64,000 nucleotides of DNA. It comes from Natronoglycomyces albus. GTDB lineage: Bacteria; Actinomycetota; Actinomycetes; Mycobacteriales; Micromonosporaceae. The notes below the pieces were generated by a model, which was given only the letters and a program-made list of their open reading frames with translations, had not been told where the DNA came from and did no database searches. The stretch's first letter is position 1, and each line of letters begins with the position of its first letter. Below are positions 103 through 28,077 of this stretch, one piece after another. The stretch spans positions 3,038,001-3,102,000 of the forward strand of contig NZ_CP070496.1 of NCBI RefSeq assembly GCF_016925535.1, read 5' to 3'. The position numbers and the translations under genes are program-made.

Positions 103-1893
103 CTAGCTCAACGAAGCCGCGGCGGCATCTTCGTCGGCATAGCCCCACTCACCGATGTTGTACAGACCACGGTTGGACGAGCTGGGGTTGTCACGGACGT
201 TGACGAGGTTCTCGTCAGCCATGATGACCACAGGCTGGTCAACCAGAGGAAGCACGTAAGCTTCCTCAACCAGCAGCTCGATCGCCTCGTTGGTGTACGC
301 GGCTGCCTCGTCGATGTCGTTGGTCGTCAGGATCTTCTCGATGACCGCGTCCAGTTCCTCGTTCGAGAGGTCACCGAAGTTCGAACCCGAACCGGTGTAC
401 CACTGTTGCTGCGGAGCGGTCGCGAATAGCGGGCTGCCCGACCAACCGAAGACGATGAGGTCATAGGCACCCTCGGACAAGACTGGACCAAGGTCACCAG
501 CCGGGATCGAGTCCAGCGCCACGGTGATACCAATATCGGCCAGCTGCTGCTGGGTGATTTCGGCGATGTCCGAACGGATCGTGTCGTCCACGGCCGCGCG
601 GAAGTTAAACGTGACCTGCTCTCCCTCAGGAGTTAGCAGATTGTCGTTGGAGTCCCACTCGTAACCGGCGTCCGCAAGGATCTGCCGAGCCGCATCGTGG
701 TCTCCGGTCCCCTGCGTCGAGTTCGCGTAGGCGTCAAAGTGGTAAGGGCTGTCAGCGGAGAACGAGTGGTTAACCTTGCGAACCTGGTCGTCAACGGCCA
801 GGCCGAAAGTGCGGTCCACCATTCCTTGCACGTCGATCGCGGTGAAGACAGCCTTGCGCAGCTCGACATCAGACAGGAACTCATTGTTGGTGTTGATGTC
901 AATGTGCGTCCACGAGGGACCAGGGCCGGTGTGGTAGTTAACGCCATCCAGGGAACGAATGTTGTCCATCTGGTCGGGATCGATCGAAGCCGGGCTGGCC
1001 ATGTTCACCGAGCCTTGACGCAGCTCGGTCACGATCGACTCCACATCCGGAATCACCTGCAGTTCGACCTCATCAAGAGTGACCTCAACGTCGCCGACGT
1101 ACTCGGGGTTCGGCTCCAAAATCACGTACTCGCCAGCCGAGGCGTCACGGATCTTCATCGGACCGGCCGACCAGGTCGGAACATTGGTCGAGTGCCACAC
1201 GGCAGACTCGCCCATGACGTCCGGGTCGTCCATCCAATCCTCGAAACCTTCATTTTCGATGATGTGGGCGGGGTAGGACAGGATTGACTGGAAGGGCCAT
1301 TCCGGGTTGGCGTAGCCATCCACGTAGGTGACGGTGATTTCGTTGTCGCCAGTCTCGTCGATGGACTCGACGTTTCCGCCCCACGCGGTGGAAGCGGGCA
1401 TGCAGTCTTCCTGGTTGCAGTGGTCGGCGTTGCCTGACCAGCTGTACCAGTTGTAGATGAAGTCCTTGTAGGTGATCGGCGTGCCGTCACCCCAGTTGGC
1501 GTCGGGATTGAGGCTGTACTTCACCGTCAGCGGGTCCTCCGAGACCAGCTCAGGTTCGCCGGTGACGATGGCCGAGTTGTATCGCGGCGTGGTGTCAGGC
1601 AGGAACTCCAACGTATCCGGGTAGATCGCTCCGATGGCCTGCACGGCATAGACGTTACGGTCCGAGGCCCGGTTGGTGTTCCAACCGGTCCAACCGGAGT
1701 CGATGACAGCCGTGACTTTCCCGCCCTGCACTCGCTCGCCGGAGTTGCATCCATTCGGGTCATCCACACAGTCGTCGAAGCCGAAACTGTCGGAACTACT
1801 GTCGCCGTTTCCATTGCCGCCGCAAGCGGTCAGCGTCAGCACCGCCGCACATGCGACGGCAAGCCCCGAAAGGGACTTTCGTTTGATATTCAT
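103..1893 (-). CDS. Family-5 ABC substrate-binding lipoprotein, array member 1
   Basis: Predicted peptide-binding lipoprotein (SBP_bac_5 type) on the outer face of the membrane. The start is the ATG at 1893, preceded by GGAGGAC. A longer frame upstream has no ribosome site. The 596-residue product has a KRK-initiated signal peptide and lipobox LTAC (Cys24). A Gly/Ser/Asp linker follows, then the array signature FDDCVDDPNGCN (Cys42, Cys49). A second Cys pair occurs in DHCNQEDC after the YNWY.WSG motif, and the C-terminal signature is NVRDNPSSSNRGLYNIGEWG. It is about 50 residues longer than typical DppA/OppA. It is closest to member 2, with which it shares a 170-bp identical 3' end. No permease gene adjoins it in the window. 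The ligand is unknown; peptide is inferred from the family. Confidence 0.93.
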   Translation of the reverse strand: MNIKRKSLSGLAVACAAVLTLTACGGNGNGDSSSDSFGFDDCVDDPNGCNSGERVQGGKVTAVIDSGWTGWNTNRASDRNVYAVQAIGAIYPDTLEFLPDTTPRYNSAIVTGEPELVSEDPLTVKYSLNPDANWGDGTPITYKDFIYNWYSWSGNADHCNQEDCMPASTAWGGNVESIDETGDNEITVTYVDGYANPEWPFQSILSYPAHIIENEGFEDWMDDPDVMGESAVWHSTNVPTWSAGPMKIRDASAGEYVILEPNPEYVGDVEVTLDEVELQVIPDVESIVTELRQGSVNMASPASIDPDQMDNIRSLDGVNYHTGPGPSWTHIDINTNNEFLSDVELRKAVFTAIDVQGMVDRTFGLAVDDQVRKVNHSFSADSPYHFDAYANSTQGTGDHDAARQILADAGYEWDSNDNLLTPEGEQVTFNFRAAVDDTIRSDIAEITQQQLADIGITVALDSIPAGDLGPVLSEGAYDLIVFGWSGSPLFATAPQQQWYTGSGSNFGDLSNEELDAVIEKILTTNDIDEAAAYTNEAIELLVEEAYVLPLVDQPVVIMADENLVNVRDNPSSSNRGLYNIGEWGYADEDAAAASLS

Positions 1894-2078
1894 GTGTCCT
1901 CCATATGGTGCACGAGTGGAGGGTGCTAGGGCTTGAATCGGCCATGCGCGCCGTGCATGGTTCCCGATTCGTTCACCGGTTAGGTGGATGCTGTTGCCCA
2001 GTCGCCACTCGCGTTGAAAACTCACTGTGACACAAAGGTGAGCCAAGTTACCATCTACTGAGAACAAATGCAGCTCAT

Positions 2079-2097
2079 TCGTGACTGGGCCGTGATC
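2079..2097 (-). promoter_or_regulatory. Shared upstream motif of the SBP array, copy 1
   Basis: On the plus strand it reads TCGTGACTGGGCCGTGATC and fits TCGTGAY-N5-YGTKATS, a direct repeat of GTGAY/GTKAT with an 11-bp period. It lies 186 bp upstream of the member 1 start. It matches copies before members 2, 3, 5 and 7, so a common regulator is plausible. Its identity is unknown. Confidence 0.45.
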
Positions 2098-2375
2098 TAT
2101 TAATTGTCAAGAACTCGGGGCCTGAGCAGGGGTTTTGCCCGTTTAGTGTGGTAACGACCAGTAGCCGACTCATCACATATGCCCTTTTTTTCCGCATTCT
2201 GGGACGTCGATTCGCCCGCTATTAGTCCCGCTGGAACGGTTTCGCCCATACTGGCCGTCATCGACGTTCCCCGTCGAATGACCTTCTATGAAGGTGACAG
2301 GGCGAAATGGGTGCCGCTGCGAAATTTCCAATCGTCACACCTTTTTAGCGCTCCACGGCTAGCTGACACAAGAAT

Positions 2376-2399
2376 GGGTGGAAGGCATGCCTTCCACCC
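2376..2399 (-). terminator. Hairpin downstream of array member 2
   Basis: Perfect inverted repeat GGGTGGAAGG / CCTTCCACCC with a four-base loop, about 150 bases past the stop of member 2. No long T-run follows on the minus strand. Confidence 0.5.
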
Positions 2400-2551
2400 G
2401 TGGCCGGATATGGAAACCCGGCATCGAGTCGATCATCATCTAAGATGAAAGGTTTACCGGGCCCGCGCTGGACGCGATTGTCGGCTCACCGACCTACGTG
2501 CGGTTGAACCGGTGCGCCACCAGCCCGGGCCGAGACCAAGCTAGGAGCTGA

Positions 2552-4336
2552 CTAGCTCAACGAAGCCGCGGCGGCATCTTCGTCGGCATAGCCCCACTCA
2601 CCGATGTTGTACAGACCACGGTTGGACGAGCTGGGGTTGTCACGGACGTTGACGAGGTTCTCGTCAGCCATGATGACCACAGGCTGGTCAACCAGAGGAA
2701 GCACGTAAGCTTCCTCAACCAAAGCGGCGATCGCTTCGTTAACAAGATCGGCGGCCTCGTCAATGTTGTTGGTCGAGGTGATCTTCTCTACCGCCTCATC
2801 AACAGCGGCGGAAGACAGGTCGCCATAGTTCGACGATGACCCGGTGTACCACTGCTGCTGTGGAGCGGTGGTGAATAGCGGGCTGCCCGACCATCCGAAG
2901 ATGATGAGGTCATAAGCGCCCTCGGACGTCACCGAGCTGAGGTCACCGGCGGGAATCGACTCCAGCACAATGTCGATGCCGATCTCGGAGGCTTGCTGCT
3001 GGGCGATTTCGGCGATGTCCGAACGGATCGTGTCGTCCACGGCCGCGCGGAAGTTAAACGTGACCTGTTCCCCTTCAGGGGTCAGCAGATTGTCATTGGA
3101 GTCCCACTCGTAACCGGCGTCCGCAAGGATCTGCCGAGCCGCATCGGCATCCCCGGTCCCCTGCGTCGAGTCCGCGTAGGCGTCAAAGTGGTAGGGACTA
3201 TCGGCCGCAAAGGAATGGTTAACCTTGCGAACCTGGTTATCGACGGCTAGACCGAAAGTGCGGTCCACTATGGCTTGAACGTCGAAGACGGTGAAGACAG
3301 CCTTGCGCAGCTCCACGTCAGACAGGAACTCATTGTTCGTGTTCGCGTCAATGTGCGTCCACGAGGGGCCGGGCCCAGTGTTGTACCGAATACCGTCCAG
3401 GGAACGAATGTTGTCCATCTGGTCGGGATCAATCGAGGCCGGGCTGGCCATCTGCACCGAGCCTTGACGCAGCTCGGTCACGATCGACTCCACATCCGGA
3501 ATCACCAGAAGTTCGACCTCATCAAGAGTGACCTCCATGTGCCCGACATAGTCGGGGTTCGGCTCCAAAATCACGTACTCGCCAGCCGAAGCGTCACGGA
3601 TCTTCATCGGGCCCGAAGACCAGGTGGGGTAATTTTCCGAATGGTAAATCGCGGACTGGCCCATCACGCCCGGGTCGTCCATCCAGTCTTCGAAACCGGC
3701 TTCCTCGATGATGTGGGCGGGATAGGACAGCACGGTGTTGAACTGCCATTCGGGGTCGGCGTGGCCATCCACGTAGGTGACGGTGATTTCGTTGTCGCCA
3801 GTCTCGTCGATCGAGGCGACATTCCCACCGTACTTAGTCGAAGACGATAGGCAGTCTTCGACGGTGCAGTGGTCGGCGTCGCCCGACCAGCCGTACCAGT
3901 TGTAAATGAAGTCCTTGTAGGTGATCGGCGTGCCGTCACCCCAGTTAGCCTCGGGGTTGAGGCTGTACTTGACCGTAAGCGGGTCCTCCGAGACCAGCTC
4001 AGGATCTTCGGCGAAGATCGCGGGGTTGAACAGGGGCGTGCCATCAGGCTGGAACAAGACGTTCTCGGGAAACACCGCTCCCATCGCCTGCACGGCGTAA
4101 ACGTTACGGTCCGAGGCCCGGTTGGTGTTCCAACCGACCCAGGCCGAGTCGATGACAGCCGTGACCTTCCCGCCCTGCACTCGCTCACCAGAATTGCAGT
4201 TGTTCGGGTCATCCACGCAGTCATCGAAACCGGCTCCGTCGGCGCTTCCGTCGCCGTCGGTGCCACAGGCCGAGAGGGTCAAAGCAAGCGCCGCGGCGAT
4301 CGCCGTCCCCATCACGGACTTTCTTTTGCGAATCAT
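2552..4336 (-). CDS. Family-5 ABC substrate-binding lipoprotein, array member 2
   Basis: Predicted extracytoplasmic peptide-binding lipoprotein of 594 residues. The ATG at 4336 is preceded by GGAGGACAC, exactly as in member 1. The lipobox is LSAC (Cys24), the first Cys pair is in FDDCVDDPNNCN (Cys40, Cys47), and the second is in DHCTVEDC. It ends with the same NVRDN...RGLYNIGEWG signature as member 1. The last 170 bp (2552-2721) are identical by eye to 103-272 of member 1, and other long blocks are nearly identical. This points to recent duplication or gene conversion. The middle and the region before the C terminus (for example SSAAVDEAVEKITST) have diverged, so ligand specificity may differ. 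Confidence 0.93.
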   Translation of the reverse strand: MIRKRKSVMGTAIAAALALTLSACGTDGDGSADGAGFDDCVDDPNNCNSGERVQGGKVTAVIDSAWVGWNTNRASDRNVYAVQAMGAVFPENVLFQPDGTPLFNPAIFAEDPELVSEDPLTVKYSLNPEANWGDGTPITYKDFIYNWYGWSGDADHCTVEDCLSSSTKYGGNVASIDETGDNEITVTYVDGHADPEWQFNTVLSYPAHIIEEAGFEDWMDDPGVMGQSAIYHSENYPTWSSGPMKIRDASAGEYVILEPNPDYVGHMEVTLDEVELLVIPDVESIVTELRQGSVQMASPASIDPDQMDNIRSLDGIRYNTGPGPSWTHIDANTNNEFLSDVELRKAVFTVFDVQAIVDRTFGLAVDNQVRKVNHSFAADSPYHFDAYADSTQGTGDADAARQILADAGYEWDSNDNLLTPEGEQVTFNFRAAVDDTIRSDIAEIAQQQASEIGIDIVLESIPAGDLSSVTSEGAYDLIIFGWSGSPLFTTAPQQQWYTGSSSNYGDLSSAAVDEAVEKITSTNNIDEAADLVNEAIAALVEEAYVLPLVDQPVVIMADENLVNVRDNPSSSNRGLYNIGEWGYADEDAAAASLS

Positions 4337-4526
4337 GTGTCCTCCATAGCTATGCCAGGCGGGTGGACGGGGCTTTGCCACGACAGTGTTCGCCCAGAAG
4401 TGCTGTCGTGTTTCGCCTTCGACCTTTCGGGCCCAAGGCTGGCAGGCACCGCCTCCTGGCGTTACCGCCATCACTTTGTCACATCGGTGAGCCAAATTAC
4501 TGTGGCCGTCAGCAAACGCGACCTTT

Positions 4527-4545
4527 TCGTGATTGCCCCGTGATG
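4527..4545 (-). promoter_or_regulatory. Shared upstream motif of the SBP array, copy 2
   Basis: Plus-strand TCGTGATTGCCCCGTGATG, 191 bp upstream of the member 2 start, almost the same distance as for members 1 and 5. Confidence 0.45.
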
Positions 4546-4808
4546 TTGAGTTCCCACCTCAAAAACAGCATGCGGCCTGGAGAATATCCATTATCTACCG
4601 TTCTGCCCGATAGTTGATCACCCCTTTTTTCCGTATTTGACATATAAAATGATTAGTTGGCACAGGCGACCAGACGGTGACGGATTACTTCAGGTAGACC
4701 GCTGCTTTGAAGATCACCTTCGTTGTCAGTGGCACCCAAATTACTGTGCGGACTATGTCGCAAGTGGAATTGACGGTGAGTTGGACGTCTTAAGTTCTTG
4801 CCTGGGAC

Positions 4809-4848
4809 GGCTGTGGGGCACGACCGTTTTTGGTCGTGCCCCACAGCC
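4809..4848 (-). terminator. Hairpin downstream of array member 3
   Basis: A 17-bp perfect stem (4809-4825 with 4832-4848) and a six-base loop lie just past the stop of member 3. The stem is very stable, but no strong T-tail follows on the minus strand. Confidence 0.7.
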
Positions 4849-4866
4849 GTACGAGTTACGACAGTG

Positions 4867-6639
4867 TTACTCGGTGCCTTCGGCGTAGCCCCATTCGGCC
4901 ATGTTGTACAGCGCGCGGATTGAGGTGGCCCAGTTGTCACGAATGTTGACCAAGTCCGAATCCGCCGCAATCAGGACTGGTGCGTCGATAATCGGAAGCA
5001 CATAGGCCTCGTCGGTGACGGCGAGCACGGCCTCGTTGGCGCGGTCGGCGGCCTCAGCCAGATCCGTCGTGCTGCGGATGTTGCTGGTGAGCTCGTCGAC
5101 GAGTTCACTGTTGAGGTTTCCGTAGTTTGACGCGGAAGTGGAGTGCCAGTGGTTGTGCGGCTGCGCGGTGAAGCGAGGGTCAGTCGACCAGGAGTAGGTG
5201 ATCATGTCGAACTGACTTTCGTTGAGGACCGTCGCAAATTCGGTACCTTCGAAAGTGTTGACGTTAATATGGATGCCGATCACACTCAGGTAGTGCTGGG
5301 TGAGCTCGGCCATCGTGGTGCGCAACCGGTCTCCGGCCACCACCCGGAATTCCAGCTCCACCTCATCGCCCTCAGGGGTGAACAGGGTGTTTCCCTGGCG
5401 ATCCCAGGTATAGCCTGCCTCTTCCAGGATCTCCCGGGCTGCCATCTCATCGCCTGTTCCCTGCGGAGAGTCGGCGAATGCGTCGATGTGGAACTCGGAG
5501 TCGTTCTTAAAGGTGTGGTTGGTCTTGCGCTCAAGGCCCTCTACCGTCAGCCCAAAGGTGCGGTCGATCAGGTCCTCAACGTCAATGGCGGTGAAGACCG
5601 CTTTCCGCAACGCCGGATCCTGGAGCAGGTCGGATTGCATGTTGAAGTCGATATGAGTCCAGTTCGGACCGACAGATAGGAAGTGGTCGACGCCCTCGAT
5701 GAAGTCAATCTGGCCCACCGATTCGGGGTCAAGGTTTCCTGGCGCGAACCCTTGAACCGTCTCCTGCCGCATCTCAGTGATGATGGAGTCTTGGTCGTTG
5801 AAGACCTCGATGGTGATGGTGTCCAATGTGGGTTTGATCGAGCCGGCCCAGTCTGGATTTGGCTCATAGATGATGTAGCTGCCAGCCTCGGCCGATTGCA
5901 CCCGATAGGGTCCCGCAGTCCAGTCCAGCGGAATTGTGTCGGAGAAGTACCAAAAGGATTCGCCCATCACATCTGGGTCACTGGCCCAGTCCTCGAAACC
6001 ATTGGCCTCGGCAATATGTGCCGGGTAGCTGAGCACCATGTGGTACTTCCACTCCGGGTCAATGTAGCCGTCGTTGTAGGTAATGACGAAGGTGTTGTCA
6101 CCGGTCTGTTCGATGTCGGAGACGTTCGCGCCCCATGTGATAGCACTGGACTCGCAGTCCGCTGGCGAGCACAGCTCCTCGTTTCCCGAGCCTTGGTACC
6201 AGTGCCATAGAAAGTCGTCGAGTCCAATGGGAGTGCCGTCGCCCCAGTTGGCGTCAGGATTGAGTTGATATTGAACCTTCATCGGGTCTTCTTCGATCAA
6301 CTCCGGCTCTTCGGTGAGAATGCCGTCATTGATACGCCACTCGCCGTCAGGGTGCCACTCCCCTATCTTGGGTTGCTTGCCCGCTAGCACTTGCGCGAGC
6401 CCCACCGAACGGTCGGCGGTGGCCCACTCATTCCAACCGCCCCAACCAGCGTCTAGCGCCCACACGACGTCACCGCCCTGTCGGCGTTCCCCGGAGTTGC
6501 AGGTGGCTGGCTCGATCTCGCAATCATCGAAGCTACCGCCCATGCCTTGATTGGCGCCACCGTCACCGCAGGCCGTCGCGCCCATGGCCAGAGCGGCGAA
6601 CAGCGCCACCCCTGCGACGGCTTTAGGTTTGTTAAACAT
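4867..6639 (-). CDS. Family-5 ABC substrate-binding lipoprotein, array member 3
   Basis: Predicted peptide-binding lipoprotein of 590 residues. The ATG at 6639 has GAGGAG upstream; the in-frame extension to 6702 lacks a site. The lipobox is ATAC (Cys24), the first Cys pair is in FDDCEIEPATCN (Cys40, Cys47), and the second is in ELCSPADC. The C-terminal signature varies to NIRDNWATSIRALYNMAEWG. It is clearly more divergent from members 1 and 2 than they are from each other, with Trp-rich DAGWGGWNEW replacing the usual segment after the first Cys pair. It is flanked by its own upstream motif and its own hairpin, so it is probably transcribed alone. The ligand is unknown. Confidence 0.92.
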   Translation of the reverse strand: MFNKPKAVAGVALFAALAMGATACGDGGANQGMGGSFDDCEIEPATCNSGERRQGGDVVWALDAGWGGWNEWATADRSVGLAQVLAGKQPKIGEWHPDGEWRINDGILTEEPELIEEDPMKVQYQLNPDANWGDGTPIGLDDFLWHWYQGSGNEELCSPADCESSAITWGANVSDIEQTGDNTFVITYNDGYIDPEWKYHMVLSYPAHIAEANGFEDWASDPDVMGESFWYFSDTIPLDWTAGPYRVQSAEAGSYIIYEPNPDWAGSIKPTLDTITIEVFNDQDSIITEMRQETVQGFAPGNLDPESVGQIDFIEGVDHFLSVGPNWTHIDFNMQSDLLQDPALRKAVFTAIDVEDLIDRTFGLTVEGLERKTNHTFKNDSEFHIDAFADSPQGTGDEMAAREILEEAGYTWDRQGNTLFTPEGDEVELEFRVVAGDRLRTTMAELTQHYLSVIGIHINVNTFEGTEFATVLNESQFDMITYSWSTDPRFTAQPHNHWHSTSASNYGNLNSELVDELTSNIRSTTDLAEAADRANEAVLAVTDEAYVLPIIDAPVLIAADSDLVNIRDNWATSIRALYNMAEWGYAEGTE

Positions 6640-6805
6640 TGGTCTCCTCACATCATGGCCAGGAGCAGTTGGGGGAATTAAGGGTGTTCGTGACAGATTC
6701 ACGTTTCATGCCACACATAAGCACATATTGGCTTCCTGGCCGGAACGACCAGCTTGTCACAAATAGGCGCGATCTGACACGAGGGGATCTGCAAAAGGTG
6801 CCCAC

Positions 6806-6824
6806 TCGTGATGAAACCGTTATC
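6806..6824 (-). promoter_or_regulatory. Shared upstream motif of the SBP array, copy 3
   Basis: Plus-strand TCGTGATGAAACCGTTATC, 167 bp upstream of the member 3 start. It fits TCGTGAY-N5-YGTKATS at every fixed position. Confidence 0.45.
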
Positions 6825-7085
6825 AATGTGACTAATGAGCCCAATTGCGCACAGAAGATGTTTGAAGCCACCAATAGGGCATAGCGCCAGGTCAGTCGTC
6901 TGACACCACGTTACTCAAGGGCTCAGGGATCGATCACGCTCCCCAGTGGACCCACGAGATCGTTGAGCGCCTCCGGGCAACCTCCCACAGCGTAGCCACA
7001 TCACGACAGGCAAGAAAAGTGCGTATCGAGCGCAGACTCGATCGACGATTCACTTAATAGCGCCCATAGACAGTGGACATGACAA

Positions 7086-7122
7086 GGCTCCGGTGGTTCC
7101 CTTCTGAGGAACCACCGGAGCC
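7086..7122 (-). terminator. Hairpin downstream of array member 4
   Basis: A 15-bp perfect stem (7086-7100 with 7108-7122) and a seven-base loop, about 150 bases beyond the stop of member 4. Confidence 0.65.
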
Positions 7123-7275
7123 GATGCCATCGGGATGATGGAGATTTAGGCACACTCCACAGTCCTAAGCGGTCTAAGACTGCCCTAGCTGCGTTCAGAA
7201 GTCGTAGCGGTTGGCCCACTTCTTTGCGCGACACGAGGCGGAGTGTTCACTGTGTTCAGTTATCGAACTGTGAAC

Positions 7276-9039
7276 TCACTCGGAGCTCCAGCCCCACTCA
7301 TGGATGTTGTAGAAGGTGTTGAGGTTCGTCTGCGTGTTTTGACGCACGTTGACGAGGTTCTCGTTGATGACCAACAGCTCCGGGCTGTCCGACTGCGGCA
7401 GCACGTAGGCCTCGGCGACCACCGCTTCCACGGCGGCGTTCGCGCGAGCGGCGGCCTCGTCCATGTCGGCCGTCTCAAAGATCGAGTCGACCAGTTCGTC
7501 CACTGCCGAGGAATCCAGCTGTCCGTAGTTCGACGTCGAATCCGAACGCCACTGAGCCGACGGGTTGTTGGCGAACTCAGGCGAGCCGGTCCACTGGAAG
7601 TTAATGATGTCGAACTCGGCGTTGTCCAGCGTACGGCTGAAGTCCTCAACCGCGTAAGTGCTGATGGAAGCGTCGACACCGAGATCGATGAGGTACTGCT
7701 GTACCAGCTCGGCGGTGGTCTGCGCATCGGCACCAGTCGAAGGCACTCGATATTCCAAGGCCACTTCGACGCCGTCGGGAGTCAATAGTTGGTCGTCTTC
7801 CCAGGTGTAGCCAGCGTCCTCGAGAATCTCGCGGGCGGCCGCGGTGTCACCGGAACCGTGACCGGCCTGCGCGACGTAGTCAACGTGATAGTTGTCGTTG
7901 TCATTGCGGAACACGTGGTTGGTCTTAGGCTCAGCGGCCTCAAAGGTCAGACCAATGGTGCGGTCAATGACGTGTTGGACGTCGATAACGGTCAACACGG
8001 CGTGGCGCAAGGCCTCATCGCGCAGGAACTCGTTTTGGACGTTCAGCGTAAAGTGACGCCAAGCCGAACCGCCGGTGAGCGCGAAGTTCACTTCTTGGGC
8101 GCTCTCCAGGGTCTGGATGACCTCGGGGTCGTAACGGCCCATCGAGGCACCGTGCACCGAACCCTGGCGGATTTCGGTCACGATCGACTCTGGATCGTCC
8201 ATCGACTCAATGCGGATGCTTTGCGCCAGCGGACCGTCTCCGGTCCACTCTTCGTTGGGCTCCAACATGATGTAGTCGCCGATGACGCCGTCTGTGATGC
8301 GGTATGGCCCCGCGGAGTACTCCGGAACCGTGCCCGCGAAGTTCTCCAGGGACTCGCCCATGGCCACTGGGTCGCTCTTCCAGTCTTCGAAGCCATACTG
8401 CTCGGCCAGGTGAGCCGGGTTGGTCAAGACGACGGCGTATTTCCATTCCGGCGTCAGGTAACCGTCCCGGTAGACCACGTGAACCGTGTTCTCGTCGACT
8501 TCCTCGATGTCGGCCACGTTCGAGCCGTACACCGTGGTGCGCGGCTGGCACTGTTCATTGCACAGGTCCGAGTCGCCCGACCAGGCATACCAGTTGTAGA
8601 TGAAGTCGTCCGCGGAGAACGGCGTACCGTCGCCCCAGCCACCTTCGGGGTTGAGGTTGTACTCAACCGTGAGCGGCTCCTCGCTGACCAAGTGGGGTTC
8701 TTGGGTCAAGACATGCGGGTTGTGCTCCCATGAACCATCGGGAAGCCAAAACCCTACGGTCGGGAACACCGGCTGAATCGCCTGGCGCGTGTAGTTGTTC
8801 ATAGTCTCGGAGTGGACTTCCGACCAACCGGACCAGTCGCCGTCGATAACCCACACGATCTCTTTGTCGCCGGTGGCGTTGGGGTCAAAGTTGCAGTTGT
8901 TGGGGTCGTCATCGCAGTCTTCGAAACCACGGCTGGCGGAGTCGCCATCGGTTCCGCCGTTGCCGCATGCCGTGAAGGCCATAACGGCAGCGGCGCCCAT
9001 GGCAACCGACGCCATGAGCCGCTTGTTGTGAATTTTCAT
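7276..9039 (-). CDS. Family-5 ABC substrate-binding lipoprotein, array member 4
   Basis: Predicted peptide-binding lipoprotein of 587 residues. The ATG at 9039 follows GGGAGGAGC. The lipobox is FTAC (Cys25). The first Cys pair is in FEDCDDDPNNCN (Cys42, Cys49). The following segment, FDPNATGDKEIVW, differs from the SGER consensus. The second pair is shortened to DLCNEQC. The C-terminal signature is NVRQNTQTNLNTFYNIHEWG, where Arg-Asp becomes Arg-Gln. It shares WSEVHS with members 5 and 6. No copy of the 19-bp motif was found in its short upstream gap, so it may be regulated differently or read from the member 5 side. Confidence 0.92.
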   Translation of the reverse strand: MKIHNKRLMASVAMGAAAVMAFTACGNGGTDGDSASRGFEDCDDDPNNCNFDPNATGDKEIVWVIDGDWSGWSEVHSETMNNYTRQAIQPVFPTVGFWLPDGSWEHNPHVLTQEPHLVSEEPLTVEYNLNPEGGWGDGTPFSADDFIYNWYAWSGDSDLCNEQCQPRTTVYGSNVADIEEVDENTVHVVYRDGYLTPEWKYAVVLTNPAHLAEQYGFEDWKSDPVAMGESLENFAGTVPEYSAGPYRITDGVIGDYIMLEPNEEWTGDGPLAQSIRIESMDDPESIVTEIRQGSVHGASMGRYDPEVIQTLESAQEVNFALTGGSAWRHFTLNVQNEFLRDEALRHAVLTVIDVQHVIDRTIGLTFEAAEPKTNHVFRNDNDNYHVDYVAQAGHGSGDTAAAREILEDAGYTWEDDQLLTPDGVEVALEYRVPSTGADAQTTAELVQQYLIDLGVDASISTYAVEDFSRTLDNAEFDIINFQWTGSPEFANNPSAQWRSDSTSNYGQLDSSAVDELVDSIFETADMDEAAARANAAVEAVVAEAYVLPQSDSPELLVINENLVNVRQNTQTNLNTFYNIHEWGWSSE

Positions 9040-9185
9040 CGTGCTCCTCCCATAGGGGCTAATTCTGGAGTGGAAAAGGAGAGACTTTCGCATTTTGGGT
9101 TCGAGAGCAAACCCATTTCTTCGCAGCGCGGCTGAAGGAGAGTCGCCGAGACCGGCGCCGCGACCACAGTAGAGGTCTGGGGAGG

Positions 9186-9224
9186 CAGACGGGGACGGTC
9201 ATTAAATATGACCGCCCCCGTCTG
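9186..9224 (-). terminator. Hairpin downstream of array member 5
   Basis: Stem 9186-9202 with 9208-9224, 16 of 17 positions paired, with a TAAAT loop. A smaller hairpin (TAGGCCC / GGGCCTA, 9252-9269) lies between it and the stop of member 5. Confidence 0.65.
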
Positions 9225-9302
9225 TGTGTTCTCATGGCACTGACATCGCCGTAGGCCCGCAAGGGCCTAGTGCCAGTACCAGTTCAGGTGGCCCAAGGGT
9301 GT

Positions 9303-11069
9303 TTAGCCCTCTTCGGCCCAGCCCCACTCGGCGATGTTGTAAACACCGCGCTGCTGCGAGGCCCAGTTGTCGCGAACATTGACCAGGTCCTCGCTGATGA
9401 GGATCAGGGCCGGGGACGCGGCGATCGGCAGGACGTAGGCGCCCTCCTCGACCAGGATCTTGCCGGCTTCGTTGGCGTATCCGGCAGCTTCGTCGACGTC
9501 GGTGGTCGACAGAACCTGCGCGGCCAGCTCGTCGAAGTCATCGTTGGCCCAGCCACCGAAGTTCGAACCAGATCCACCGCTGAACAGCTGGGTGGGGCCG
9601 GTGGCGAAGGTCGGAGAACCGATCCACTGGAAGCTAACCACGTCGAACTGCTGCTCCATGAGCACCTCGGTGAGCTCACCGTCAGCAAAGCTGGACAGGC
9701 TCACGTCGATACCGATTTCGCTCAGGTAGGCCTGGAACAGTTCAGCGGTGGTCTGAGCGTTGTCACCCTCGGCGGGCAGACGGTACTCAAGCTCCACGGC
9801 GTCGCCGTCCTCAGTCGTCAGCGTGTCACCTTCCCAGGTGTAGCCAGCCTCTTCCAGGATCGCGCGAGCGGCCTCAACGTCACCGGTGCCCTGCGTGGAA
9901 CCCTCGTACAGGTCCACGAAGTAGTCCGGGTCGTCGTTACGGAAGAAGTGGTTCAAGGCGCGCTCGGCGTCTTCTTGGGTCAGACGCGTCGTGCGGTTGA
10001 GGATTTCCTCGATGTCAACGGCGGTCAGTACGGCCTTGCGCAGTTCCACATCGCTGAGGAAACGGCTCTCGGTGTTGAGGTCGAAGTGGCTCCAACCAGG
10101 TCCGGCCGCGACGTTGTAGCGGATGCCGTCAACGCCGTCCAGGGTCGAGATGTCGTCGGGGTCGAAACGGCCCGGCGTGGCGCCGTGGATCGTGCCCTGA
10201 CGCAGTTCGGTGATGATCGCCGAGGTGTCGGAGAACACTTCCATGCGGATGTTCGACAGCGTCGGCTGAACGTCGCCGGCGTATTCTTCGTTGATCTCGT
10301 AGGAGACGTAGTCGCCCATGTCGGCGTCAACGATCTTGTACGGACCAGCGGTGTACTCCGGAACAGTGTTCACGAAGTTGACCAGCGACTCACCCATGAC
10401 CTCAGGGTCGGTCTTCCAGTCTTCGAAGCCGTATTCCTCGGCCAGGTGGGCCGGGTTGGTCAGCACCGTGGCGACCATCCACTCGGGCGTCTGGTAGCCC
10501 TCGTTGTAGGAGATGACAATGGTGTTGTCTTCTTCACCTTCGGTGATGTCCTCTACGTGCGGGCCCCAGCCCAACGAGCGCGGCTCACACTGCTCGTCAC
10601 AGAAGTCTTCGTTGCCCGACCAGGCATACCAGTTGTAGATGAAGTCATCGAGCCCGATCGGCGTACCGTCGCCCCAGGTTCCCTCAGGGTTGAGGTGGTA
10701 CTGGACCTGCATCGGGTCTTCGTTGATGAGTTCCGGCTCTTGGGTGAGGATGTGGGTGTTGTAGTGGAAGTCGGCATTCTGGTCGAAATAGCCGATCCGC
10801 GGAGCCACCGGCTCCAGGACGTCACCGGCGGACTGGCCGTAGGCACCGTGTACCTCGGACCATGAGGCCCAGCCACTGTCCAGACCCCACACCAGCTCCT
10901 CGCCGTCGAATGCTTCGCCGGAGTTGCAGGTGGTCGGGTTCTCGTCACAGTCTTCGAAGCCGACTCCGGCGCTGCTGCCATTCGAGCCTGATCCACCGCA
11001 CGCTGACAACAGCAGCGCGGCGGATGCCGCGGCTGACACGCCGAGCACCGTCTTCTTCTTACGGAACAT
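9303..11069 (-). CDS. Family-5 ABC substrate-binding lipoprotein, array member 5
   Basis: Predicted peptide-binding lipoprotein of 588 residues. The ATG at 11069 follows GGAGGAAAATAC. The lipobox is LSAC (Cys24), the first Cys pair is in FEDCDENPTTCN (Cys41, Cys48), and the second is in DFCDEQC. The C-terminal signature is NVRDNWASQQRGVYNIAEWG. It is closest to member 6: both have VNFVNTVPEY.AGPYKIVDA and the same C-terminal WASQQRG. The predicted mature protein is strongly acidic. The 19-bp motif lies 190 bp upstream and a hairpin follows the gene, consistent with a single-gene transcript. Confidence 0.93.
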   Translation of the reverse strand: MFRKKKTVLGVSAAASAALLLSACGGSGSNGSSAGVGFEDCDENPTTCNSGEAFDGEELVWGLDSGWASWSEVHGAYGQSAGDVLEPVAPRIGYFDQNADFHYNTHILTQEPELINEDPMQVQYHLNPEGTWGDGTPIGLDDFIYNWYAWSGNEDFCDEQCEPRSLGWGPHVEDITEGEEDNTIVISYNEGYQTPEWMVATVLTNPAHLAEEYGFEDWKTDPEVMGESLVNFVNTVPEYTAGPYKIVDADMGDYVSYEINEEYAGDVQPTLSNIRMEVFSDTSAIITELRQGTIHGATPGRFDPDDISTLDGVDGIRYNVAAGPGWSHFDLNTESRFLSDVELRKAVLTAVDIEEILNRTTRLTQEDAERALNHFFRNDDPDYFVDLYEGSTQGTGDVEAARAILEEAGYTWEGDTLTTEDGDAVELEYRLPAEGDNAQTTAELFQAYLSEIGIDVSLSSFADGELTEVLMEQQFDVVSFQWIGSPTFATGPTQLFSGGSGSNFGGWANDDFDELAAQVLSTTDVDEAAGYANEAGKILVEEGAYVLPIAASPALILISEDLVNVRDNWASQQRGVYNIAEWGWAEEG

Positions 11070-11258
11070 GTATTTTCCTCCATTGTTGGGCCGGGCGGAT
11101 TTGCAAGGTAGCGCCGCACAATTTCGCTTGAACCCGGATATCATCCGCGCTCGTGTCACCTAGTCTCGCGACTGCGCAAGGGTATTCCCGGCCCTGTGGC
11201 CATAGCCTTACATAAACAAGTGCGTGGTGACAGTTACAGGTGGCGAACTGGTGCGTAC

Positions 11259-11277
11259 TCGTGATGCATTTGTTATG
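11259..11277 (-). promoter_or_regulatory. Shared upstream motif of the SBP array, copy 4
   Basis: Plus-strand TCGTGATGCATTTGTTATG, 190 bp upstream of the member 5 start. It overlaps an imperfect palindrome (GATGCATTTGTTATGCGTC). Confidence 0.45.
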
Positions 11278-11544
11278 CGTCACAACAAAGCAAAAAGTAG
11301 TCGGACCATATCATTGGGTTACCTGAATTTGGGTCACTTGAGCAGGGAAAATGCCGTGTCGCCGAAAAATGATGTGGTGGGCGGCATTCATTGGCGCAAT
11401 CACGAAAACTGTTCTCGATTAATCAGTCAAGTGTGTCGGGCGCCACACATAGCGCAAGCGCCTGACCACCACAACTAGGCGCACTCACATCGGTAGCACG
11501 AATCAATCGGCGACAATCAGCAACCGCCAATATGAAAACTCTAC

Positions 11545-11584
11545 GTTGGTGTTTCTCGCAGCCCTAGCCGCGAGAAACACCAAC
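11545..11584 (-). terminator. Hairpin downstream of array member 6
   Basis: A stem of 14-15 bp (GTTGGTGTTTCTCG with CGAGAAACACCAAC) about 80 bases beyond the stop of member 6. Confidence 0.65.
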
Positions 11585-11662
11585 CGCTTCTTAACCTATT
11601 CAGCCTACGACGGCATTGGCTTTTGTCGCGCACGTTGAACAATGCGGGCGACTGGCGAGGTA

Positions 11663-13423
11663 TCAAGCACTTCCCTCGTCAAGCCAACCCCATTCCTCAA
11701 TGTTGTATAGGCCTCTTTGCTGAGAAGCCCAGTTATCGCGCACGTTGACCAAGTCCTCGTGAACCATGACCAAGACCGGGTTATCGGTGATGGGAAGGAC
11801 GTAGGCCTCTTCGACCACCGCTTCCACCGCCGCGTTCGCCCGGGCGGCCGCCTCGTCCATGTCAGTCGTTTGCAGGACTGACTGAACCAGCTCATCGATG
11901 TTCTCGTTCTCCAAGTTGCCGAAGTTCGAGTTCGAGGTCGAATGCCAAAACTGGCTCGGGGCAGAGGCAAAGGTCGGTGAAGAGATCCACTGGAAGCCAA
12001 TGACGTCGAATTGCGCCCCCATCAAGACCTCCGTGAGGTCACTGGGCTCATACGTCACCAAGGTCACCTCGATCCCAATTTCGCCCAGGACGCTTTGGAA
12101 CAGCTCTGCCTGCACTTGAGAGTTAATGCCCTCAGTGGGAAGCCGGTATTCCAACGTCACCTGCTCGCCATCGGGGGTAAAGAGCTTGCCTTGCTCCCAG
12201 TAATAGTCGGCGTCTTCCAAAATCTCCGAAGCGAAGAAGACATCCCCCGAGCCCTGCCCAGTTGAGGTCACATAGTCGACGTAGTAGTCGGTTCGGGTCG
12301 GGAAGATGTGGTTGCCGCGAACCTCCACCTGGTCATGGCTGAGACGAACCGTGCGGTCGAGGACCTGCTCGATGTCGAACGCGACGAGTACGGCCCGGCG
12401 CAACTGCTTGTCTTGCAGGAACTGGTTGTTCATATTCAGGTCAATGTGGCTCCAGCCGGGCCCGGGGGCCACGTTGTAACGGAAGCCAGAGCTACTGCGA
12501 AGAGCCGAAATATCGTCGGGGTCGTGGCGACCCGGCGTCGCCCCGTGGACGGTCCCCTGCCGCATCTCAGTGATGATGGCGGAGGTGTCCGCGAAGTACT
12601 CCATCCGGATATTGGACAGCACCGGTTGCGTGTCGCCCAGATAGTCCTGGTTGATTTCGAACCGGACGTAGTCACCCATTTCCGCGTCAACGATCTTGTA
12701 GGGACCGGCCGAGTACTCGGGCACGGTGTTCACGAAGTTGACCAGCGACTCGCCCATGACCGTCGGGTCGGTCTTCCAGTCCTCGAAACCGTACTGCTCG
12801 GCCAAGTGAGCCGGATTGGTTAGCACGGCGGCGAACTTCCACTCCGGAGTGAGGTAACCATCGACATACCTAACGACGATCGTGCCCTCATCAGTCTCAG
12901 AGATCTGCTCAACATTGGGACCCCACGCCCCAGAACGCGGCGAGCACAGGTCCTGATCGCACATATCGGGGTCGCCAGACCACGCATACCAGTTGTAGAT
13001 GAAGTCGTCGAGCCCAATGGGGTTGCCATCGCCCCAGTTCGCGCCCTCCTTCAGGAAGTATTCGACCTCCATCGGATCCTCGTTGATCAGCTCAGGTTCC
13101 TTTTCAAAGAGAGCCGAGTTGAGAACCCATTCGCCATCGGGATGGAACGTACCGGTGCGGGGGAAGACTGGCGAAATCACGTCTCCAGCTGCCGCACCGA
13201 AGGACGAATGCACCTCTGACCAGCTATTCCAGCTGGCATCTAGAGCCCACACCACTTCCTCTCCGTCGCGACGGGGGCCGGAGTTGCATTCGGCCGGGAA
13301 ATCCTGACAATCATCGAAGCCCTGGCTGCGATTGTCATCTCCCGAGCCGCCACAGGCGGTCAGCATCAGCGCCGTTGATGCCGCAATCACCACGCCCGTA
13401 GCAAAATTCTTTTTAACGAACAT
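11663..13423 (-). CDS. Family-5 ABC substrate-binding lipoprotein, array member 6
   Basis: Predicted peptide-binding lipoprotein of 586 residues. The ATG at 13423 has GAGGAG upstream. The lipobox is LTAC (Cys24), the first Cys pair is in FDDCQDFPAECN (Cys39, Cys46), and the second is in DMCDQDLC. The C-terminal signature is NVRDNWASQQRGLYNIEEWG. It is a close paralogue of member 5, sharing long identical protein blocks such as PGRHDPDDIS versus PGRFDPDDIS. No 19-bp motif was found in its 548-base upstream gap. The ligand is unknown. Confidence 0.93.
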   Translation of the reverse strand: MFVKKNFATGVVIAASTALMLTACGGSGDDNRSQGFDDCQDFPAECNSGPRRDGEEVVWALDASWNSWSEVHSSFGAAAGDVISPVFPRTGTFHPDGEWVLNSALFEKEPELINEDPMEVEYFLKEGANWGDGNPIGLDDFIYNWYAWSGDPDMCDQDLCSPRSGAWGPNVEQISETDEGTIVVRYVDGYLTPEWKFAAVLTNPAHLAEQYGFEDWKTDPTVMGESLVNFVNTVPEYSAGPYKIVDAEMGDYVRFEINQDYLGDTQPVLSNIRMEYFADTSAIITEMRQGTVHGATPGRHDPDDISALRSSSGFRYNVAPGPGWSHIDLNMNNQFLQDKQLRRAVLVAFDIEQVLDRTVRLSHDQVEVRGNHIFPTRTDYYVDYVTSTGQGSGDVFFASEILEDADYYWEQGKLFTPDGEQVTLEYRLPTEGINSQVQAELFQSVLGEIGIEVTLVTYEPSDLTEVLMGAQFDVIGFQWISSPTFASAPSQFWHSTSNSNFGNLENENIDELVQSVLQTTDMDEAAARANAAVEAVVEEAYVLPITDNPVLVMVHEDLVNVRDNWASQQRGLYNIEEWGWLDEGSA

Positions 13424-13971
13424 CTGTTTCTCCTCATATGCGGAGCTAGCTGGCGCAAGCGCGCCGTAGCGCCCGTCGAAGACGGGGGTATGTCACCGGG
13501 GTCGGTCTAGCTCCACCGATAAGCCTGCCACCCAACGCGTCGGTAGCGCACGTTTGAACCGGCTCTGGTACTCCGTTGTAATACAGATGTGACCTGCGAA
13601 AATGTTCTCAATTCCGGGCAATTGAGCCATTGGAGAGTTATTCGACCATCCCAGTGCATAGCCATATCCGCCATTCGGTTGAGGAGACACTAGCCGATCG
13701 ACTAATAAGGTCGACTGCCCAAAAAAACGCTTTCGCCAGCCCTGTGATACCGAGGCGCAACCGTCGGTAGGCAAAACCGCGGATACATCGGCACGATGGC
13801 CCCAGATACTGGCTCACGCCCGGAGCAAAACCCACCCGAACCTAGATAAACCAAGGGCCCGAACACGTGGTGTTCGGGCCCTTGGGGCCGGCTTGAGCCG
13901 ACAGGCCAGCGAGCGATATCAAGTGACCGTCCAAGCAAAATTGCCCACAGCGGCACTCAAGGGGAGCGGAC
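13424..13971. other. Intergenic region between array members 6 and 7
   Basis: This 548-base gap holds the upstream region of member 6 and the terminator hairpin of member 7 (13851-13885). It lacks the 19-bp motif found before five other members, and I see no supported gene. Confidence 0.55.
13851..13885 (-). terminator. Hairpin downstream of array member 7
   Basis: A 16-bp perfect stem (13851-13866 with 13870-13885) and a three-base loop, about 90 bases past the stop of member 7. Confidence 0.65.
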
Positions 13972-15720
13972 CTATTGAGCCGCCAAGCCCCACTCGGCCA
14001 TGTTGTACATCGCCCGGCTCTGGGTGGCCCAGTTGTCGCGGACATTGACCAGTTCGTCATTGGCCATGATGATCACCGGCGTGTCGGTTATCGGCAGCAC
14101 GTAGTGATTCGTCACCGCCTGTTCCAGCGCGGCGTTAGCCAGCTGGGCCGCCTGGTCCATATCGGTGGTCTCCATGACCTCCTCAGCCAACGAGTCGAGC
14201 ACCTCATCGTCGAGACCGCCATAGTTCGAACCAGACTGTGAATGCCAGTACTGGTGGGCGTTTTGCGCAAACGTCGGCGACCCAGTCCATCCGAAGTAGA
14301 CCATGTCATAGTTCTGGCCCGACAGAACGTCACCAAGTTCACCGGTGGCGATCTGGTTGAGCTGGATGTTGATACCCAGGTCGCCCAGCTGCTGTTGGAG
14401 CAGTTCGCCGTAGGTCACGTTGATCGAGTTGTCGCCCCCAAAGCGGAATTCCAGCTCGACGGGTTCTCCATCGGGAGACAAGAGCGCGTCGTTGTTGTCG
14501 AACGAATAGCCCGCTTCTTCCAGAATGGACCGAGCGGCCTCGAGGTCACCGGTGCCCTGTGCGGTGTCAGACAGGTAGTCCTCGAAATAGTCGTTGTCGT
14601 TACGGAAGATGTGGCTAAGCTTGCGCTCCAAATCCTCCATGACCAAACGGTGTCCACGGTCAAGCATCGCCTCGACATCGATGGCGGTAAAGATGGCTTC
14701 CCGCAGCGCGTCGTCCGACAGGAACTCGTTGTTCATGTTCATGTCGATGTGATTCCAGGCCGGACCGGCCGAGACACGATAGTTGATGCCTTGAGTTCCC
14801 TGGAGCTGTTCCAACATGTCCGGGTCGACCGCCGAGGGCGAAGCGCCGTCAATGGAGCCGTTGCGCAGCTCGGTGATGATCGACTCGACCGACTCGATGC
14901 GCTGGAGCGTGATCTTGTCCAAAGTCGGCTGGATCGAACCGGCCCACTCCTGGTTGGGTTCCAAGATCACGTAGTCCGACACGGCGGCGTCAGTGATTTT
15001 GTACGGCCCTGCGGTCCAGGTCGGCACCGTCGAGACGAAGTGATTGACCGACTCTTCCATGGCAGAAGCGTCGTTCTGCCAGTCAAAGCCTTCCGCTTCA
15101 GCGATGTGGGCCGGGTGGGAAAGGACTTCCTGCATCATCCACTCTGGCGTCAGGAAGCCGTCGCGGTAGGTGACGATAATGGTCTGTTCGTTGTCACCTT
15201 CATCGATGGAATCGACGTTGGCTCCATACGAAGTCGCGGGCGGGACGCAGCCTTCACACAGGTCTTGGTCACCGGAGCGGGCATACCAGTTCCAAATGAA
15301 GTCGTCGACGTTCACGTTCGTGCCATCGCCCCATGTGGCCTCGGGGTTGAGGGTGTACTCGACCTGTAGCGGGTCATCCGAGAGCATCTGCGGCTCCTCG
15401 GCCAACAGGCCGTCGTTGTAGACGAAATCGCCTGCTTGGTTGAATTCGCCAACACTGGGCAGGGTCGCCAAGATCGCCTGGCGGGTGTAGACGCTGGAGC
15501 TTTCCGTACTGACCAAGCTCCATCCTTCCCAGCCCGAGTCGATGGCCCAGTTGATCTCGCCGCCGTCGCGGCGCTCGCCCTCGTTACAGGTGACCGGGTT
15601 GTCTTCGCAGTCTTCGAATCCGGCCCCGGCGGGGGTGGCGCTTCCGCCGCCGCAGGCGGTGAGGACTAGGGCCAGCGACGTGGCTGACACCAGTCCAAAT
15701 ACTGATTTCTTCATCAACAT
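13972..15720 (-). CDS. Family-5 ABC substrate-binding lipoprotein, array member 7
   Basis: Predicted peptide-binding lipoprotein of 582 residues. The first ATG (15720) lies four to five bases after GGAGGAG. A second ATG at 15714 is equally possible, giving 580 residues. The lipobox is LTAC (Cys23), the first Cys pair is in FEDCEDNPVTCN (Cys38, Cys45), and the second is compressed to LCEGC. The C-terminal signature is NVRDNWATQSRAMYNMAEWG, closest to member 3. As the first gene of the array in transcriptional order it has a long 650-base upstream region with one copy of the 19-bp motif 281 bp from the start. Confidence 0.92.
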   Translation of the reverse strand: MLMKKSVFGLVSATSLALVLTACGGGSATPAGAGFEDCEDNPVTCNEGERRDGGEINWAIDSGWEGWSLVSTESSSVYTRQAILATLPSVGEFNQAGDFVYNDGLLAEEPQMLSDDPLQVEYTLNPEATWGDGTNVNVDDFIWNWYARSGDQDLCEGCVPPATSYGANVDSIDEGDNEQTIIVTYRDGFLTPEWMMQEVLSHPAHIAEAEGFDWQNDASAMEESVNHFVSTVPTWTAGPYKITDAAVSDYVILEPNQEWAGSIQPTLDKITLQRIESVESIITELRNGSIDGASPSAVDPDMLEQLQGTQGINYRVSAGPAWNHIDMNMNNEFLSDDALREAIFTAIDVEAMLDRGHRLVMEDLERKLSHIFRNDNDYFEDYLSDTAQGTGDLEAARSILEEAGYSFDNNDALLSPDGEPVELEFRFGGDNSINVTYGELLQQQLGDLGINIQLNQIATGELGDVLSGQNYDMVYFGWTGSPTFAQNAHQYWHSQSGSNYGGLDDEVLDSLAEEVMETTDMDQAAQLANAALEQAVTNHYVLPITDTPVIIMANDELVNVRDNWATQSRAMYNMAEWGLAAQ

Positions 15721-20831: not shown

Positions 20832-21041
20832 GGTGGATTTGTCCTGACTAGAGCAGTGATTCTGACACGGCTCCACCGACCCCAGAATTGCTCGCGCGAC
20901 TTTGGTCGTGCCGGTATGAGTGGGCATTTCGCGAGATAGCGGGTTCGGCTCGGTGACCAGCGATCCAACTTAGTCGACAGTTATAGCGGTCGTCAAATCC
21001 TTTTTGGGATAGCGAGGGTTGGGATTGAGGTGGCGGTCGGT

Positions 21042-23701: not shown

Positions 23702-23729
23702 GAAAAATCAGACACTCCTCGCAGAGTAA

Positions 23730-23830
23730 GAGGCTTATGCAAAAGTGGGGTTCAAGGTAGCCGGGAACGAAGTGTCCGCCGAGTAAATGGGCCGACGCGA
23801 GCGAAGATGACTTCTATTGCATATGCCTTT
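23730..23830. repeat. Palindromic repeat element, copy B
   Basis: About 100 bp starting AGGCTTATGCAAAAG and ending TTCTATTGCATATGCCT, with TTCAAGG and GGCCGACGCGAGCG inside. It aligns with copies A and C. It lies directly upstream of the maturase gene, within the presumed transcript. Confidence 0.6.
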
Positions 23831-23834
23831 ATGC

Positions 23835-23932
23835 GGGTTATGCAATAGCGCGCGTTCAAGGCCGTACCAGGCGGTGCTTACACAGGAAAACGAGCCGACG
23901 AAAGCGGCGAAAATGCCTTTTGCGTGATCCTC
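23835..23932. repeat. Palindromic repeat element, copy C
   Basis: About 98 bp starting GGTTATGCAATAGCGCGCG and ending GCCTTTTGCGTGATCC, with TTCAAGGCC and GAGCCGACGAAAGCGG inside. It is arranged head to tail with copy B, four bases apart. Confidence 0.6.
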
Positions 23933-24043
23933 TATGAGAGTTGAGCCGGGGCAAATTGTATGTCATGGGTCGGCAGTTGCCATTTGTCAGTAGAGTGCAA
24001 AAATACTACTGCCGTGTTCGCTCTACGAAAGGGCGGCTGGAGA

Positions 24044-24077
24044 GCGACCCGGCTCATCTGTTCGACGGCCGAGTCGC
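24044..24077 (-). terminator. Attenuator-like hairpin after the RiPP precursor
   Basis: Stem GCGACCCGGC (24044-24053) with GCCGAGTCGC (24068-24077), ten pairs including one G-U, starting nine bases after the precursor stop. No T-run follows. In RiPP operons such hairpins often let the precursor be made in excess over the enzyme. Confidence 0.5.
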
Positions 24078-24085
24078 TGGGTCAA

Positions 24086-28075: not shown

Positions 28076-28077
28076 GA

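What the first reader, a model, noticed from the sequence alone, without database searches (positions are those of the whole stretch)
103..15720. Seven tandem paralogous substrate-binding lipoproteins with no transporter genes
Seven 582-596 residue family-5 binding proteins occupy 15.6 kb, each apparently its own transcription unit. Such a run without any permease is unusual. They may share the OppBCDF complex encoded 9 kb away, act as sensors, or bind ligands for another purpose. The left edge of the window hides whether more members or a permease follow.
Basis: partly seen in the sequence, partly recalled or inferred. Interest (0 to 1): 0.7.

Follow-up and report, generated by a model that had tools for sequence, protein, structure and literature searches.

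The report
Eight-binding-protein array feeding one importer
Next to a single nutrient importer, this bacterium carries eight related but diverged binding proteins in a row, seven of them closed off by terminator-like hairpins, so one import pump is probably served by many interchangeable capture proteins; the missing pump lay just outside the window.

Summary
The seven tandem family-5 solute-binding lipoproteins are real, but the headline "no transporter genes" is a window-edge effect. The array runs on leftwards: an eighth binding protein (S0) and then oppB-oppC-oppD-oppF, all on the same strand, begin 0.8 kb and 3.1 kb beyond the window edge. The same locus in Glycomyces has up to five tandem binding proteins upstream of oppBCDF, and in Stackebrandtia and several other genera of the family one; eight is the most I found. 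Seven of seven upstream genes (S1-S7) are followed by an inverted repeat; S0, next to oppB, is not. Glycomyces shows the same pattern, 20 of 21 against 1 of 6. The paralogs differ more in the predicted ligand cleft than elsewhere; single-binding-protein orthologs do the reverse. Most likely eight separate capture proteins, plus two unlinked paralogs, serve one Opp importer and widen its ligand range, as shown for Pseudomonas DppA1-5 and proposed for Borrelia OppA1-5. Ligands and docking are inferred. A known kind of system, expanded unusually far.

The parts
13972..15720 (-). S7, family-5 solute-binding lipoprotein, 582 aa (most distal from oppB)
   Evidence: PF00496 164.8 bits; lipobox LTAC
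13851..13885 (-). inverted repeat after S7, 16-bp arms, T-rich tail: probable terminator
11663..13423 (-). S6, solute-binding lipoprotein, 586 aa
   Evidence: PF00496 136.4 bits; 62% identical to S5
11545..11584 (-). inverted repeat after S6, 15-bp arms: probable terminator
9303..11069 (-). S5, solute-binding lipoprotein, 588 aa
   Evidence: PF00496 158.1 bits
9186..9224 (-). inverted repeat after S5, one mismatch, score 13: probable terminator
7276..9039 (-). S4, solute-binding lipoprotein, 587 aa
   Evidence: PF00496 150.8 bits
7086..7122 (-). inverted repeat after S4, 15-bp arms: probable terminator
4867..6639 (-). S3, solute-binding lipoprotein, 590 aa; folded (mean pLDDT 89.8), Z 42 to EppA
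4807..4850 (-). inverted repeat after S3, 19-bp arms: probable terminator
2552..4336 (-). S2, solute-binding lipoprotein, 594 aa
   Evidence: PF00496 183.8 bits; 82% identical to S1
2376..2399 (-). inverted repeat after S2, 10-bp arms: possible terminator (the weakest of the seven)
103..1893 (-). S1, solute-binding lipoprotein, 596 aa. The array continues left of the window with S0 (G000:C1:3035458-3037197), oppB (3033918-3034940), oppC (3032987-3033943), oppD (3031881-3032984), oppF (3030834-3031880), all on the minus strand
   Evidence: PF00496 193 bits; left flank

Best explanation
This is one oligopeptide-type ABC importer (OppBCDF) with an expanded set of capture proteins. Eight lipid-anchored binding proteins (S0-S7) are coded in tandem upstream of oppBCDF, and two further paralogs (SX1, SX2) sit elsewhere without a permease. 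Each of S1-S7 is probably its own transcription unit closed by a hairpin; S0 has no such hairpin and may read through into oppBCDF (inferred). Each binding protein would trap its own range of ligands, probably peptides, and dock to the same OppBC pore, so that ligand range is set by which binding protein is made. The genes arose by duplication and diverged most at the ligand cleft. Shown: gene order, fold of one member, intact reading frames, hairpins, expansion in relatives. Supported but not proven: cleft divergence beyond background. Inferred: shared docking, ligand identity, separate regulation.
For: The left flank holds S0 + oppBCDF in line. Permease accounting: an OppB search of the genome returned 4 matches. 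The 3 besides this one each lie beside their own binding protein; a more diverged permease set at 1703414 also has its own. Of 15 PF00496 proteins, 8 are the array, 4 sit with their own permeases and 3 have none nearby, of which SX1 and SX2 are of the array's clade. Synteny: in 20 of 23 fetched loci the binding gene or genes lie directly upstream of oppB, with 1-5 tandem copies. Hairpins (score 10 or more within 200 nt of the stop): 7 of 7 upstream genes here, not S0; Glycomyces 20 of 21 inner against 1 of 6 oppB-proximal genes; 18 of 92 background ORFs. Cleft: array 38.6% identical in 21 cleft positions against 49.5% elsewhere; seven single-binding-protein orthologs 53.5% against 44.7%; difference test P 0.0013-0.0044 in three versions. 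dN below dS: 0.12/0.50 for S1/S2, 0.31/1.44 for S5/S6. Function of such sets: P. aeruginosa (PMC4206461, PMC12728205) and Borrelia (PMC5736914).
Against: No docking, binding or expression data. The cleft signal is modest: the array alone against random columns gives P 0.06, and the five-paralog arrays of three Glycomyces species show cleft and background about equal (differences -3.6, 0.0, -2.1). Two Glycomyces ortholog sets (slots 1 and 3) also show lower cleft than background identity (-6.3, -1.4). Cleft positions were transferred from EppA, only 27-28% identical to S3. Pairs of sequences are not independent, so the P values are rough. Promoters were not demonstrated. The S2 hairpin (score 10) is below the best of 100 base shuffles of its own stretch (13).
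Confidence: 0.76

Rival explanations
1. Dosage: the copies are redundant and raise the amount of binding protein for one ligand class.
For: S1 and S2 are 82% identical and share 17 of 21 cleft residues (81%). Binding proteins are commonly made in excess over permease (general knowledge).
Against: Other pairs are only 42-62% identical and differ more in the cleft than elsewhere. Separately closed units would not be needed.
Confidence: 0.13
2. Some or all members are sensors or act outside transport, for example in signalling or scavenging, without using OppBCDF.
For: Two same-clade paralogs, SX1 and SX2, lie without any permease. LpqW, a protein of this fold, is among the structural matches; that LpqW has a non-transport role is recalled.
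Against: The array is joined to oppBCDF in line, and relatives keep this order in 20 of 23 loci. No kinase or regulator lies within it.
Confidence: 0.07
3. The binding proteins serve the other OppBCDF at window 24904-29079.
For: Same chromosome region, about 9 kb away; cross-use between importers cannot be excluded.
Against: That operon has its own binding protein at 29544-31181, and its OppB is about 29-33% identical to the array's OppB. A dedicated OppBCDF adjoins the array.
Confidence: 0.04

Closest known systems
Borrelia burgdorferi OppA1-A5 with OppB1C1/OppB2C2/OppDF (PMC5736914, abstract and passages read)
   Same: Tandem binding-protein paralogs on the chromosome (three), two more elsewhere, one ATPase pair; the paper cites a promoter for each of the three genes and models different ligand cavities
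   Different: Three tandem genes rather than eight; two permease pairs; mono-, bi- and tricistronic transcripts were seen there, whereas hairpins separate the genes here; unrelated lineage
Pseudomonas aeruginosa DppA1-A5 with DppBCDF (PMC4206461 abstract and one section; PMC12728205 abstract)
   Same: Several paralogs, four near the permease operon and one distant, feeding one permease, with distinct ligand profiles measured
   Different: Five paralogs, interspersed with other genes; Gram-negative periplasmic proteins; ligands known
EppA, EDTA-binding protein of Chelativorans (PDB 6WM6/6WM7; PMC7312458, passages read)
   Same: Closest solved structure: Z 42 over 528 residues, 28% identity
   Different: Of its four EDTA-binding cations, those at R56, K470 and R480 are replaced in all ten paralogs, and an Arg at R74 remains in three of ten; an EDTA ligand is not supported
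Mycobacterium tuberculosis OppA (Rv1280c)-OppBCD
   Same: Second closest structures, Z about 35; actinobacterial peptide importer
   Different: One binding protein per permease set (abstract start of PMC2923189 in listing)

Membership tests
Family-5 (SBP_bac_5, cluster C) solute-binding proteins | PF00496 match over the curated cut-off | tested here: met
   S1-S7 136-193 bits; S0 154.9 bits
Family-5 (SBP_bac_5, cluster C) solute-binding proteins | Cluster C fold | tested here: met
   S3 model mean pLDDT 89.8; EppA Z 42, Mtb OppA Z 35, AppA Z 34. Only S3 was folded
Family-5 (SBP_bac_5, cluster C) solute-binding proteins | Lipoprotein signal with lipid Cys (Gram-positive type) | tested here: met
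   Invariant A-C at positions 23-24 in all 10 paralogs; read from sequence, no signal-peptide predictor run
Opp/Dpp importer with several binding proteins | One permease-ATPase set adjoining several binding-protein paralogs | tested here: met
   S7-S0 then oppB, C, D, F in line; NCBIfam hits of the four subunits, all below equivalog cut-offs
Opp/Dpp importer with several binding proteins | All binding proteins dock to and deliver to that permease | not testable with these tools
   Needs genetics or reconstitution
Opp/Dpp importer with several binding proteins | Distinct ligand ranges of the paralogs | tested here: inconclusive
   Cleft residues diverge; no ligands measured
Opp/Dpp importer with several binding proteins | Separate transcription of the paralogs | tested here: inconclusive
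   Hairpins after 7 of 7 but no promoter signal above chance
Opp4A oligopeptide-binding equivalog (NF045467) | Score over the curated cut-off of 650 bits | tested here: not met
   69-95 bits in the four tested of eight
EppA-type aminopolycarboxylate-binding proteins | Cationic residues R56, R74, K470, R480 | tested here: not met
   Three of four positions lack a cation in all ten; R74 kept in three of ten

The most novel reading that the evidence does not exclude
The site upstream of oppB in Glycomycetaceae is a place where hairpin-closed binding-protein cassettes are gained, lost and diverged repeatedly, so that one importer is re-specified by swapping cassettes. Two binding-protein lineages seem ancestral. 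Glycomyces expanded mainly one of them, while the window's genome lacks it and expanded the other to eight tandem copies plus two unlinked ones.
Probability: 0.4. Interest if true: 0.5.

Novelty: new variant of a known kind. Interest (0 to 1): 0.36.

Why it matters
One pump with many capture proteins is a known plan, but eight tandem, hairpin-separated paralogs is more than the three to five of the model cases I read. Related species carry 1, 2, 3, 4, 5 and 8 copies at what looks like one site, so the locus is a natural series for testing how binding-protein duplication widens an importer's range and how many binding proteins one permease can serve. It also warns that window edges can make an importer look like orphan receptors.

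Tried and rejected
Rejected: 'no permease'; sharing with the window's Opp operon as the main explanation (it has its own binding protein); EDTA binding; assembly artefact or recent amplification as the general explanation (42-62% identity; only S1/S2 are recent). S1 and S2 resemble each other through the coding region only (flanks about 40%), and the last ~90 nt of coding sequence are identical, which may be gene conversion; not pursued.

Led nowhere: Rfam over window and left flank, no match; sigma-70 promoter scan, below chance; shared upstream words, none in all eight, best 3-4 of 8 and partly ribosome-binding-site-like. The first hairpin count allowed loops up to 9 and no mismatch and missed those of S6 and S5; one search repeats it with loops to 12 and one mismatch, and its numbers are used. 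The tree with distant outgroups was badly rooted and was replaced. A PF00496 survey of 25 genomes of the order was cut off in the listing; among listed rows I saw no run longer than two outside the own genome, which is only a hint. Literature searches for such an array returned nothing on it; one search found no paper holding Glycomyces, oligopeptide, ABC transporter and substrate-binding together. Searches were used only as listings; of PMC6981132 (Devosia) I saw passages and took nothing.

Of the 23 named loci, 12 were used for the trees and 11 (ten Glycomyces loci and L046) were not; one search adds rows from L047, L050, L051, L053, L054, L056, L060, L061 and L062. The hairpin comparison used 6 of the 18 Glycomyces array loci that have oppB.

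Full report
What is there. The window is G000:C1:3038001-3102000 of a 4.01-Mb genome. Seven minus-strand genes, S7 (13972-15720) down to S1 (103-1893), code for 582-596-residue lipoproteins of family 5 (PF00496, 136-193 bits). The left flank, read as L016, continues the row: S0 (579 aa; G000:C1:3035458-3037197), then oppB, oppC, oppD and oppF down to 3030834, the four overlapping or within 2 bp of each other and all on the minus strand. So the array has eight members and ends in a complete importer. The finding's own refuting condition is met.

Permease accounting. The genome has 15 PF00496 proteins. Eight are the array. Four sit beside their own permease genes: window 29544-31181, and near 3335603, 1702142 and 3565991. 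Three have no permease nearby: SX1 (526942-528720), SX2 (2260181-2261929) and one of another kind at 3790361. SX1 and SX2 are 43-50% identical to the array proteins and share their conserved cysteines. A search with the array's OppB gave four matches, the array's own and three others at 27-33% identity.

Relatives. 23 loci with public names were fetched. In 20 of the 23 the binding gene or genes lie directly upstream of oppB: 18 Glycomyces loci with 5 (7 loci), 4 (9), 3 (1) or 2 (1) tandem copies, and two Stackebrandtia loci with one. Of the other three, two end at a contig edge and one is a distant Geminicoccaceae match. In the genus of G011, which coincides in contig lengths and places with these Glycomyces records, I read from the places, over 22 genomes, tandem runs of 5 in seven, 4 in nine, 3 in one, 2 in two, 1 in two and 0 in one (matches at E 1e-100 or better; contig ends may shorten some). 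Another genus (G013) has two, and G022, G004, G347, G339 and G156 have one beside oppBCDF (G022 also has a pair without opp genes in the stretch fetched). A scan of 354 genomes of the family found relatives at E 1e-140 or better in 36. No genome searched showed as many as eight, but larger taxa were not surveyed fully.

History. A tree of 58 proteins puts the ten paralogs of this genome, the first and last slots of the Glycomyces arrays and one G013 gene on one side (92/86, not fully supported), and the middle Glycomyces slots with the other G013 gene on the other (99/98). The simple reading is an ancestor with two binding genes; Glycomyces then multiplied mainly one lineage, while this genome lost it and multiplied the other. 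Order among the ten is largely unresolved; only S1-S2 and S4-S5-S6 are firmly grouped. So S0, next to oppB, is not shown to be the ortholog of the oppB-proximal gene of Glycomyces.

Transcription units. Spacers between the binding genes are 263-905 bp, and 517 bp before oppB. In the 200 nt after each stop codon I sought inverted repeats (score: paired bases minus 3 per mismatch). S7 to S1 score 16, 15, 13, 15, 19, 10 and 12; S0 scores 5. Base-shuffled stretches averaged 5.1-5.5; their highest single values were 8-13, and S2 is the weak case, its score of 10 lying under its own shuffled maximum of 13. A weaker 8-point repeat lies 340 nt after S0. In six Glycomyces arrays, 20 of 21 inner genes but only 1 of 6 oppB-proximal genes score 10 or more; among 92 background ORFs of the genome, many probably inside operons, it is 18. 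Only S7 (and S2 loosely) has a T-run; that hairpins can stop transcription in actinobacteria without one is recalled, not tested. The pattern fits seven closed units and read-through from S0 into the importer.

Structure and ligand cleft. S3 folds with mean pLDDT 89.8; the nearest solved structures are EppA (Z 42, 28% identity over 528 residues) and M. tuberculosis OppA (Z 35). From the EppA paper I took 21 cleft-lining residues (PMC7312458, passages) and transferred them by alignment. In the array these positions are 38.6% identical against 49.5% for other aligned columns; in seven single-binding-protein orthologs 53.5% against 44.7%. The contrast is unlikely for random columns (P 0.0013, 0.0020, 0.0044 in three versions). 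Against this: the array alone is only borderline (P 0.06), Glycomyces five-gene arrays show no clear contrast, two of five Glycomyces ortholog sets also have lower cleft than background identity, and the sequences are not independent. S4, S5 and S6 share a cleft type (R at EppA 152, Q at 460, G at 415), and S0-S3 another (D at 415). EppA's EDTA-binding cations are mostly absent, so an EDTA ligand is not supported; the ligand class is most likely peptides, by kinship with OppA and AppA only.

Verdict. An importer with several binding proteins is a known kind. P. aeruginosa has five DppA paralogs for one DppBCDF with different measured profiles (PMC4206461, abstract and one section; PMC12728205, abstract), and B. 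burgdorferi has three tandem plus two plasmid-borne OppA, the tandem ones with individual promoters (PMC5736914, passages). This case is the same plan carried to eight tandem genes plus two unlinked paralogs, with hairpins between the units and a graded series in relatives. It is a good system for the question of how many capture proteins one pump can serve, but not a new mechanism.

Noticed in passing
window 21042-24184 (-): Candidate RiPP cluster: a 32-aa Cys-rich ORF (24086-24184), a radical SAM/SPASM maturase (22358-23701; best NCBIfam TIGR04463, 192 bits, under its cut-off of 525) and an MFS-type exporter (21042-22367).
   Followed up: partly
window 103-291 and 2552-2740: S1 and S2 share near-identical 3' coding ends (189 nt at 96%, the last ~90 nt identical) with unrelated flanks: possible gene conversion.
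   Followed up: partly
L024, L027, L036, L041, L043, L044 (middle array slots): Many middle-slot Glycomyces binding proteins begin MALTRRALGG, a twin-arginine-like signal (motif recalled), and lack the CxxxxxxCN motif of the window's paralogs; export by a different route would be odd within one array.
   Followed up: no
window 103-15720, all S genes: All ten paralogs keep four extra cysteines besides the lipid one (S0 positions 38, 45, 155, 158); the second pair is also present in EppA as CxxC. Possible disulfides.
   Followed up: no
L016:5036-7006 (-): GGDEF diguanylate cyclase about 6 kb beyond oppF.
   Followed up: no
window 18741-20927 (-): HelR/HelD-like RNA polymerase recycling ATPase, 300 bits against NF041258, under its cut-off.
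   Followed up: no
L016:9620-11956 (-): Three ORFs that read like NuoH, NuoC and NuoB of complex I, standing apart from a full nuo operon in the stretch read (my reading, no family search).
   Followed up: no
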